Shown here: positions 19,466 through 61,947 of the stretch, one piece after another
Numbering within the stretch: position 1 is the stretch's first letter
Layout: each line of letters opens with the position of its first letter
Origin: Coprococcus comes ATCC 27758
GTDB taxonomy: Bacteria; Bacillota; Clostridia; Lachnospirales; Lachnospiraceae
Direction of reading: 5' to 3'
NCBI RefSeq assembly: GCF_025149785.1
Contig: NZ_CP102277.1
Span: 1,860,001-1,924,000, forward strand
DNA: 64,000 nucleotides
The notes under the pieces: generated by a model
Database searches by the model: none
What the model saw: only the letters and a program-made list of their open reading frames with translations
What the model was told of the DNA's origin: nothing
Position numbers and translations under genes: made by a program

Positions 19466-19626
19466 GACAAAGTGTATATAGAAAGTGCTGCGGCTTTCCT
19501 TCGGCAAACCATTCCGAGGAACCTCTGAAAGCGGGAATCGTGTTCAGCAAAGGCTTCCACGATTCCTGAGTTTCCTCTCCATTGCCTCAATAAGGAAGCC
19601 GCAGCACTTTCCAGATCCAATTTGTC
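19466..19626. repeat. Structured repeat element, copy 1
   Basis: Variable arms 19481-19501 and 19592-19611 pair over 20 bp with one bulged T (GAAAGTGCTGCGGC...). The core holds P2 (GGCAA/TTGCC), P3 (GAGGAA 19516-19521 with TTCCTC 19572-19577, extended by CTC/GAG) and P4 (GGAATCGTG 19534-19542 with CACGATTCC 19558-19566), closed by the 15-nt loop TTCAGCAAAGGCTTC. Outside, GACAAA/TTTGTC and TTAG/CTAA add weaker pairing. It lies between the tsf end and the HlyD operon start. Copies 2 and 3 are at 44743 and 61809. Confidence 0.85.
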
Positions 19627-44705: not shown

Positions 44706-44938
44706 ACGAATGGGACGGTTTGTGGAAGAAGAGAATGGGGACGCCGTGAGGGAAGCGAAAGTCCTGCACGCCTCAAGTTGTACAAACCATTCCGATGAAC
44801 CACTTAGGGCGAAAATCGTGTTCAGCAATGGCTTCCACGATTTTTGTGTTTCATCTCCATTGCACAAAATAGAGGCGTGCAGGACTTTCGCTTCCCTCAC
44901 GGCTGTGCATTGGCTGGTTGCACAAACCTGAGATTCGT
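44706..44938. repeat. Structured repeat element, copy 2
   Basis: Arms 44743-44774 and 44872-44903 are perfectly complementary over 32 bp, with a sequence unlike the other copies. The core has P3 (GATGAA 44794-44799 with TTCATC 44850-44855, extended by CAC/GTG) and P4 (AAAATCGTG 44812-44820 with CACGATTTT 44836-44844) around the loop TTCAGCAATGGCTTC. P2 has one A-C mismatch. Further out, ACGAAT/ATTCGT and GGTTTGTG/CACAAACC (44706-44724 with 44921-44938) add a second layer. It lies between divergent NusG_II and apbE genes. Nothing else is recognised in 44655-45013. Confidence 0.85.
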
Positions 44939-61808: not shown

Positions 61809-61947
61809 GAATAAAATCCACCCCATTCCAAGTTGTGCAAAGCATTCCGATGAGCCTCTTAGGGCGAGAATCGTGTTCAGCAAAGGCTTCCACGATTCTT
61901 GAGTCTCATCTCCATTGCACAAGATAGGAATGGGGTGGATTTTATTC
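61809..61947. repeat. Structured repeat element, copy 3
   Basis: Arms 61809-61829 and 61927-61947 are perfectly complementary over 21 bp. The core has P2 (TTGTGCAA/TTGCACAA), P3 (GATGAG 61849-61854 with CTCATC 61905-61910, extended by CTC/GAG) and P4 (AGAATCGTG 61867-61875 with CACGATTCT 61891-61899), closed by TTCAGCAAAGGCTTC. It lies between convergent rqcH and murI. Its arm ends are A- and T-rich, so this copy could also terminate both genes. The 10-mer TAGGTTGTGA (61786-61795) precedes it. Confidence 0.87.

What the first reader, a model, noticed from the sequence alone, without database searches (positions are those of the whole stretch)
19481..19611. Three-copy structured repeat with conserved core, covarying stems and copy-specific self-complementary arms
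Copies at 19481-19611, 44743-44903 and 61809-61947 share a core: P2 (GCAA/TTGC), P3 (6 bp, a C-T mismatch, 3 bp), an asymmetric TTAGGGCG/T joint, P4 (AATCGTG/CACGATT) and a 15-nt loop TTCAGCAAAGGCTTC. Six core pairs differ between copies and all six remain paired: one in P2 (G-C or T-A); three in P3 (G-C/T-A, A-T/G-C, T-A/A-T); two in P4 (G-C/A-T twice). One extra P2 position in copy 2 is an A-C mismatch. Outside the core each copy has a 20-32 bp arm, near-perfectly self-complementary but of different sequence. This pattern indicates selection on a folded RNA or single-stranded DNA. I do not recognise it as a named RNA family.
Basis: seen in the sequence. Interest (0 to 1): 0.92.

Follow-up and report, generated by a model that had tools for sequence, protein, structure and literature searches.

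The report
Hairpin mobile repeats with conserved core
The three hairpins in the window are 3 of 28 copies of a dispersed, transposon-derived hairpin repeat found across the Lachnospiraceae, with a strictly conserved folded tip on a long stem whose sequence differs in every copy yet stays self-complementary.

Summary
The window's genome has 28 copies (3 in the window), Coprococcus comes MSK.16.63 has 44, six other species of the genus have none, and relatives occur across Lachnospiraceae. No Rfam family matches. Core covariation is strong (22 of 30 pairs change on both sides).

In several relatives the same core sits in ~235-bp elements with terminal inverted repeats (GATTNGGGTGTCAAAAGCCC or GATGTTGGGGTCAAAAGCC) and, in the clearest copies, ~8-9 bp target duplications. 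Those repeats match the ends of IS1182-like insertion sequences, one of which lies decayed in the window's own genome. So the family is MITE-like; the window's copies have other, worn ends, so their own mobility is inferred by homology.

Unusual points: at orthologous sites the core diverges 2.8% against 9.3% for flanks; the ~32-bp arms change by clustered double substitutions with few G-U intermediates; paralogs with nearly identical cores have nearly unrelated arms, while orthologs keep theirs. An RNA-specific reading is not supported. I favour a DNA hairpin element whose core is constrained and whose arms stay paired largely through replication template switching. What the core does is inferred, not shown.

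The parts
19466..19497 (+). Copy 1, left arm (inner two thirds well paired with the right arm)
   Evidence: the C. comes ortholog L306 is perfect over 33 bp
19495..19595 (+). Copy 1, structured core (P1, P2/P3, P4, loop TTCAGCAAAGGCTTC)
   Evidence: covariance model match, 112.6 bits, E 1e-28
19596..19626 (+). Copy 1, right arm; outer third (about 19612-19626) has lost complementarity
44740..44774 (+). Copy 2, left arm (GACGCC...GCCTC)
   Evidence: 9 paired double changes against its C. comes ortholog L300
44773..44873 (+). Copy 2, structured core (loop TTCAGCAATGGCTTC)
   Evidence: covariance model match, 114.2 bits, E 4e-29
44872..44903 (+). Copy 2, right arm
61809..61829 (+). Copy 3, left arm (21 bp, perfect; the outer part is lost on the right side)
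   Evidence: the C. comes ortholog L299 still has 32 bp (31 paired)
61828..61928 (+). Copy 3, structured core
   Evidence: covariance model match, 117.3 bits, E 5e-30
61927..61947 (+). Copy 3, right arm

Best explanation
These are copies of a fold-back, MITE-like mobile element. Its full form, seen in relatives, is: terminal inverted repeat, spacer of about 17 nt, arm of about 25-35 bp, joint, and an apical structured core of about 90 nt. In several lineages it was moved in trans by IS1182-like DDE transposases that share its ends (matching termini and target duplications shown; movement in trans inferred). In the window's genus the copies are old, sit at fixed intergenic sites, have worn or different ends, and are being lost by partial deletion of the hairpin (shown). 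The core is retained under constraint (shown by slow evolution), most likely because it acts as a folded single DNA strand or cruciform recognised by the mobilising or a host machinery (inferred). The arms need only be complementary, and are kept so largely by template switching within the hairpin during replication, which rewrites several pairs at once (inferred from clustered double changes with few intermediates).
For: Elements of about 235 bp with inverted ends GATTNGGGTGTCAAAAGCCC; clear 8-9 bp target duplications in L049, L062, L129 and L149. The same terminus precedes a decayed DUF772/DDE transposase in G407 and in the window's own genome at about 2.5846-2.5865 Mb. Intact IS1182-like relatives in G110 and G118 have such ends on both sides, and G118's agrees with MITEs L130/L151 over GATGTTGGGGTCAAAAGCC. 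Core divergence between orthologs 2.8% against 6.8% arms and 9.3-9.5% flanks, p = 6e-22 for core against near flank. 38 double compensatory arm changes between orthologs, overdispersed (mean 1.65, variance 10.5 per locus), with 19 G-T-type and 11 A-C-type single changes. Partial hairpin deletions at orthologous sites. Multi-base compensatory changes by template switching are described in PMC8794818.
Against: The window's copies lack the IS1182-type ends, and G176's copies have a third kind of end. Most genomes rich in the repeat hold no close relative of the transposase. Target duplications are clear in only 4 of 26 full elements. Inert MITEs should not conserve their centre, so an unknown function must be added. 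Paralogs with almost identical cores have almost unrelated arms, which slow template switching alone does not explain.
Confidence: 0.6

Rival explanations
1. A multi-copy structured non-coding RNA: the hairpin is transcribed and the core binds a protein or another RNA; the transposon ends only spread it.
For: Asymmetric core with a nearly invariant loop and strong covariation; core constrained at fixed loci; one base pair at the foot of P4 is usually G-U on the + strand.
Against: G-T and A-C mismatches are about equally common in arms (43 to 37) and in the core once the two helix-end pairs are set aside (9 to 9); G-U states are rare at covarying interior pairs. No Rfam match. No promoter-like site around copy 1 (a weak test). 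No transcript data.
Confidence: 0.2
2. A passive MITE: neither arms nor core are selected. Arms stay paired by template switching and cores look alike because copies convert one another or spread recently.
For: Near-perfect arms of unrelated sequence and clustered double changes fit template switching; two orthologs have exchanged core stem segments.
Against: Core divergence between orthologs is a third of the flanks', and conversion within each genome would raise it, not lower it. The asymmetric internal loops would be erased by unchecked template switching, yet persist. No donor copies were found.
Confidence: 0.15
3. A transcription insulator or terminator-like hairpin kept between genes.
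For: Common between convergent genes (26 of 66) and rare between divergent genes (4 of 66).
Against: No T-run and no terminator call around copy 1; copy 2 lies between divergent genes. The same bias is expected of any insertion that must spare promoters.
Confidence: 0.04
4. A REP/BIME-like repeat moved by a RAYT (Y1, TnpA-REP) transposase.
For: Dispersed intergenic palindromes, often in inverted pairs.
Against: No Y1 transposase (PF01797) in the window's genome or in G176, G198, G404, G405, G407; target duplications and long inverted ends in relatives do not fit.
Confidence: 0.01

Closest known systems
MITEs (non-autonomous derivatives of insertion sequences), here of IS1182-like elements
   Same: Small, without a gene, dispersed and intergenic; in relatives terminal inverted repeats shared with an IS1182-like transposase element and short target duplications.
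   Different: The most conserved part is the folded centre, not the ends; the same core occurs inside at least three kinds of ends; arms are copy-specific yet near-perfect; the core is constrained at fixed sites.
REP/REPIN elements with RAYT transposases
   Same: Many intergenic hairpins per genome, often in inverted pairs.
   Different: Several times longer; no Y1 transposase in the genome; target duplications in relatives.
Template-switch maintained hairpins (PMC8794818)
   Same: Multi-base compensatory changes that keep stems perfect without single-change intermediates.
   Different: There described for RNA genes; here proposed for a dispersed DNA repeat, with 25 orthologous loci as natural replicates.

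Membership tests
MITE of an IS1182-like insertion sequence | Short, no open gene of its own, many dispersed copies | tested here: met
   About 235 bp in relatives, core plus arms about 160 bp in the window genome; 28 copies in G000 and 44 in G232; no recurrent neighbouring protein
MITE of an IS1182-like insertion sequence | Terminal inverted repeats shared with an autonomous element | tested here: inconclusive
   Met for relatives: L130/L151 against G118, and GATTNGGGTGTCAAAAG against one-sided transposase remnants in G407 and G000. Not seen around the window's own copies or G176's.
MITE of an IS1182-like insertion sequence | Target site duplication | tested here: inconclusive
   Clear 8-9 bp repeats in L049, L062, L129 and L149, partial in others of 26 full elements; G176 copies have repeats of about 9-11 bp by eye; none established for the window's copies
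MITE of an IS1182-like insertion sequence | Movement by the transposase in trans | not testable with these tools
   Needs a transposition assay; no clean empty sites found
REP/REPIN with RAYT | A Y1 (RAYT) transposase in the host genome | tested here: not met
   PF01797: none in G000, G176, G198, G404, G405, G407
Named Rfam RNA family | Covariance-model match above the family threshold | tested here: not met
   0 gathering hits in the window; best permissive hits for copy 1 are chance level; none for L129
Structured non-coding RNA | Covarying stems | tested here: met
   but template switching can produce the same pattern (PMC8794818)
Structured non-coding RNA | G-U pairs tolerated well above A-C on the transcribed strand | tested here: not met
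   43 to 37 in arms; 19 to 11 between orthologs; 9 to 9 in the core apart from two helix-end pairs
Structured non-coding RNA | Transcription of the element | not testable with these tools
   No transcriptome available

The most novel reading that the evidence does not exclude
The ~90-nt core is an independent structural module that outlives and moves between different transposon ends, is kept by selection at fixed chromosomal sites, and acquires a new, perfectly paired ~32-bp stem whenever it is copied or converted: a hairpin module with a rewritable stem and an unknown recognising protein.
Probability: 0.25. Interest if true: 0.85.

Novelty: new variant of a known kind. Interest (0 to 1): 0.6.

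Why it matters
It is a natural experiment on how long hairpins evolve: 25 orthologous loci in two sequenced gut species where arms, core and flanks can be compared at the same age. It can separate covariation caused by selection on RNA from covariation caused by DNA-level copying, a distinction on which the discovery of RNA families relies. And it defines a conserved structured DNA (or RNA) module in common human gut bacteria that has no known binding partner.

Tried and rejected
RAYT/Y1 partner: absent. A recurrent neighbouring gene: none, neighbours are ordinary housekeeping genes. Plasmid carriage: none. Phage carriage: one hit, but record MT840076.1 looks like mislabelled bacterial DNA. 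Viral contigs: no match to the stringent core pattern or to the terminal repeat; the 78 hits were to a short pattern and were not followed. A 1.84-kb pair of ends in G407 (L371) as the autonomous element: no transposase-like gene evident among its open frames. Terminal-repeat hits in L144: chance. A fully autonomous IS with the exact GATTNGGGTGTCAAAAG ends on both sides was not found, only one-sided remnants. Donor copies for replaced arms or cores: none convincing. A bias in orientation relative to replication, counted from the positions and assuming the contig starts at the origin: not significant. Literature: no description of this repeat found with the terms tried; the library covers only open papers.

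Full report
Observation. A pattern search of the genome gave 10 copies; a covariance model built from those gave 28 copies in this 3.37-Mb genome, 44 in G232 and none in six other species of the genus. G232 is Coprococcus comes MSK.16.63, judged from matching contig lengths. In a sample of 397 genomes of the family multi-copy occurrence is patchy (G000, G232, G176, G198, G333); several of the single hits there are chance matches in genes. Exact-pattern hits in a second collection are mostly Lachnospiraceae. No Rfam family matches.

Anatomy. From outside in: weakly conserved ends; an arm of about 25-35 bp, near-perfect in 69 of 72 copies but different in each; P1 (8 bp); an asymmetric internal loop; P2/P3 with a C-T mismatch; an asymmetric joint; P4 (about 10 bp); and the loop TTCAGCARNGGCTTC (one T shorter in many copies) with AGC/GCT inside. 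On 72 copies and on 107 further copies the structure is supported far beyond shuffled and slid controls.

Relatives show what it came from. In many Lachnospiraceae the same core lies in elements of about 235 bp bounded by GATTNGGGTGTCAAAAGCCC, or GATGTTGGGGTCAAAAGCC in L130/L151. Four copies have clear direct repeats at the boundary (L049 GTAATAGG, L062 CTTATAGG, L129 CATCATAGG, L149 CTTTATAGG) and others partial ones. One genome holds 83 such termini, many belonging to internally deleted or truncated copies.

The termini belong to IS1182-like elements. In G407 a terminus of this kind precedes a decayed DUF772/DDE transposase. The window's own genome has a frameshifted relative at about 2.5846-2.5865 Mb starting GATTAGGGTGTCAAAAG, its far end overrun by an IS110-family gene. 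The family label is by best match: the intact G176 protein scores 126 bits to the NCBIfam IS1182 model, below its cut-off of 270, so I say IS1182-like. Relatives in G110 (1852 bp) and G118 (2023 bp; one stop inside the matched part) have inverted ends on both sides; G118's GATGTTGGGGTCAAAAGCCCC agrees with the L130/L151 elements over GATGTTGGGGTCAAAAGCC. I therefore call the family MITE-like. Two limits apply. The window's copies have other ends (about GATANAGGTTG.. and ..CAACnTTATCGAAT, read), and G176's copies a third kind (TAGGYAATTGCGAAAC..). And most genomes rich in the repeat hold no close relative of the transposase, so mobilisation of the window's own copies is inferred by homology.

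The window's copies are old and fixed. 25 of 28 have a C. comes ortholog. Fifteen sites of C. comes copies missing here were located in the window's genome; many retain a piece of arm or core, so they are deletions rather than empty sites. Despite that instability the core in surviving orthologs diverges 2.8%, the arms 6.8% and the flanks 9.3-9.5% (core against near flank p = 6e-22). Flank divergence may be inflated by gappy alignment, but the core against arm difference (p = 3e-8) is less exposed to that. Sites are not independent (linked changes), so these p-values are nominal.

How the arms evolve. Between 23 usable orthologs there are 38 concerted double changes in the arms against 19 changes to or from G-T and 11 to or from A-C. 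They are clustered: 13 of 23 loci have none, one (L288/L292) has 13 and one (window copy 2) has 9. In the core two ortholog pairs (L278/L296, L274/L310) show several adjacent paired changes at once. Interior covarying pairs rarely show G-U states. The expected mark of selection on an RNA stem, G-U well in excess of A-C, is missing; that expectation rests on general knowledge of RNA families, and I ran no control family. Template switching during replication produces such multi-base compensatory changes (PMC8794818), so arm complementarity need not be selected. The conserved unpaired loops of the core would be erased by unchecked template switching, so the core does need another constraint.

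A point plain drift does not explain: paralogs whose cores are at least 95% identical (18 pairs) have arms 48% identical, against 36% for shuffled arms, whereas orthologs with cores 97% identical keep arms 89% identical. Either arms are remade when a copy is born, or cores are homogenised among copies by conversion, or cores are so constrained that their similarity says little about age. The data do not decide.

Context. All copies examined are intergenic by simple ORF calling. Neighbouring genes (left, right, relative to the core): +/- 26, -/- 23, +/+ 13, -/+ 4. In the window the neighbours are an HlyD-like protein and elongation factor Ts (copy 1), a NusG-II domain protein and ApbE, divergent (copy 2), and an NFACT protein and an Asp/Glu racemase-like protein, convergent (copy 3). 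Close pairs of copies were always convergent: nine loci in the two genomes, of which two are orthologs of others, plus L058, L084 and L121. I have no explanation for that orientation.

Verdict. Real, widespread and structured; derived from a mobile element; not a named RNA family and not a REP/RAYT system. The origin is ordinary; the constrained core and the rewritten, copy-specific arms are not.

Noticed in passing
L275, L279, L283, L293, L302, L306, L309, L317, L318 (G000/G232); L058, L084, L121: Whenever two copies lie within about 1 kb, their cores are convergent (+ then -), 200-900 bp apart; in L318 (C. comes) tRNA-like sequences lie between them. Unexplained.
   Followed up: partly
G000 C1 about 2,584,360-2,584,746 (L418:360-746): An IS110-family transposase gene runs over the far end of the decayed IS1182-like element.
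   Followed up: partly
L326-L340 (G000 sites of C. comes copies): Hairpin copies are often lost by partial deletion, several times leaving outer arms or a half hairpin (L329, L331, L332, L334).
   Followed up: partly
L373, L374, L382 (G407), L377 (G405): Coreless miniatures of 48-87 bp with the same terminal repeats; L373 and L374 share nearly the same internal breakpoints.
   Followed up: partly
L290:1459 against L301:1487: The two species carry copies at what looks like the same site but with different arms; a replacement or two independent insertions.
   Followed up: no
L129, L380 (G405): Another palindromic repeat (ATCATAGGAAATTGC..GCAATTTCCTATGAT) lies next to several insertions and may be a preferred target.
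   Followed up: no
MT840076.1 (L396): A 5.2-kb record labelled Bacteriophage sp. (unverified) looks like ordinary bacterial DNA and carries one copy of the hairpin.
   Followed up: partly
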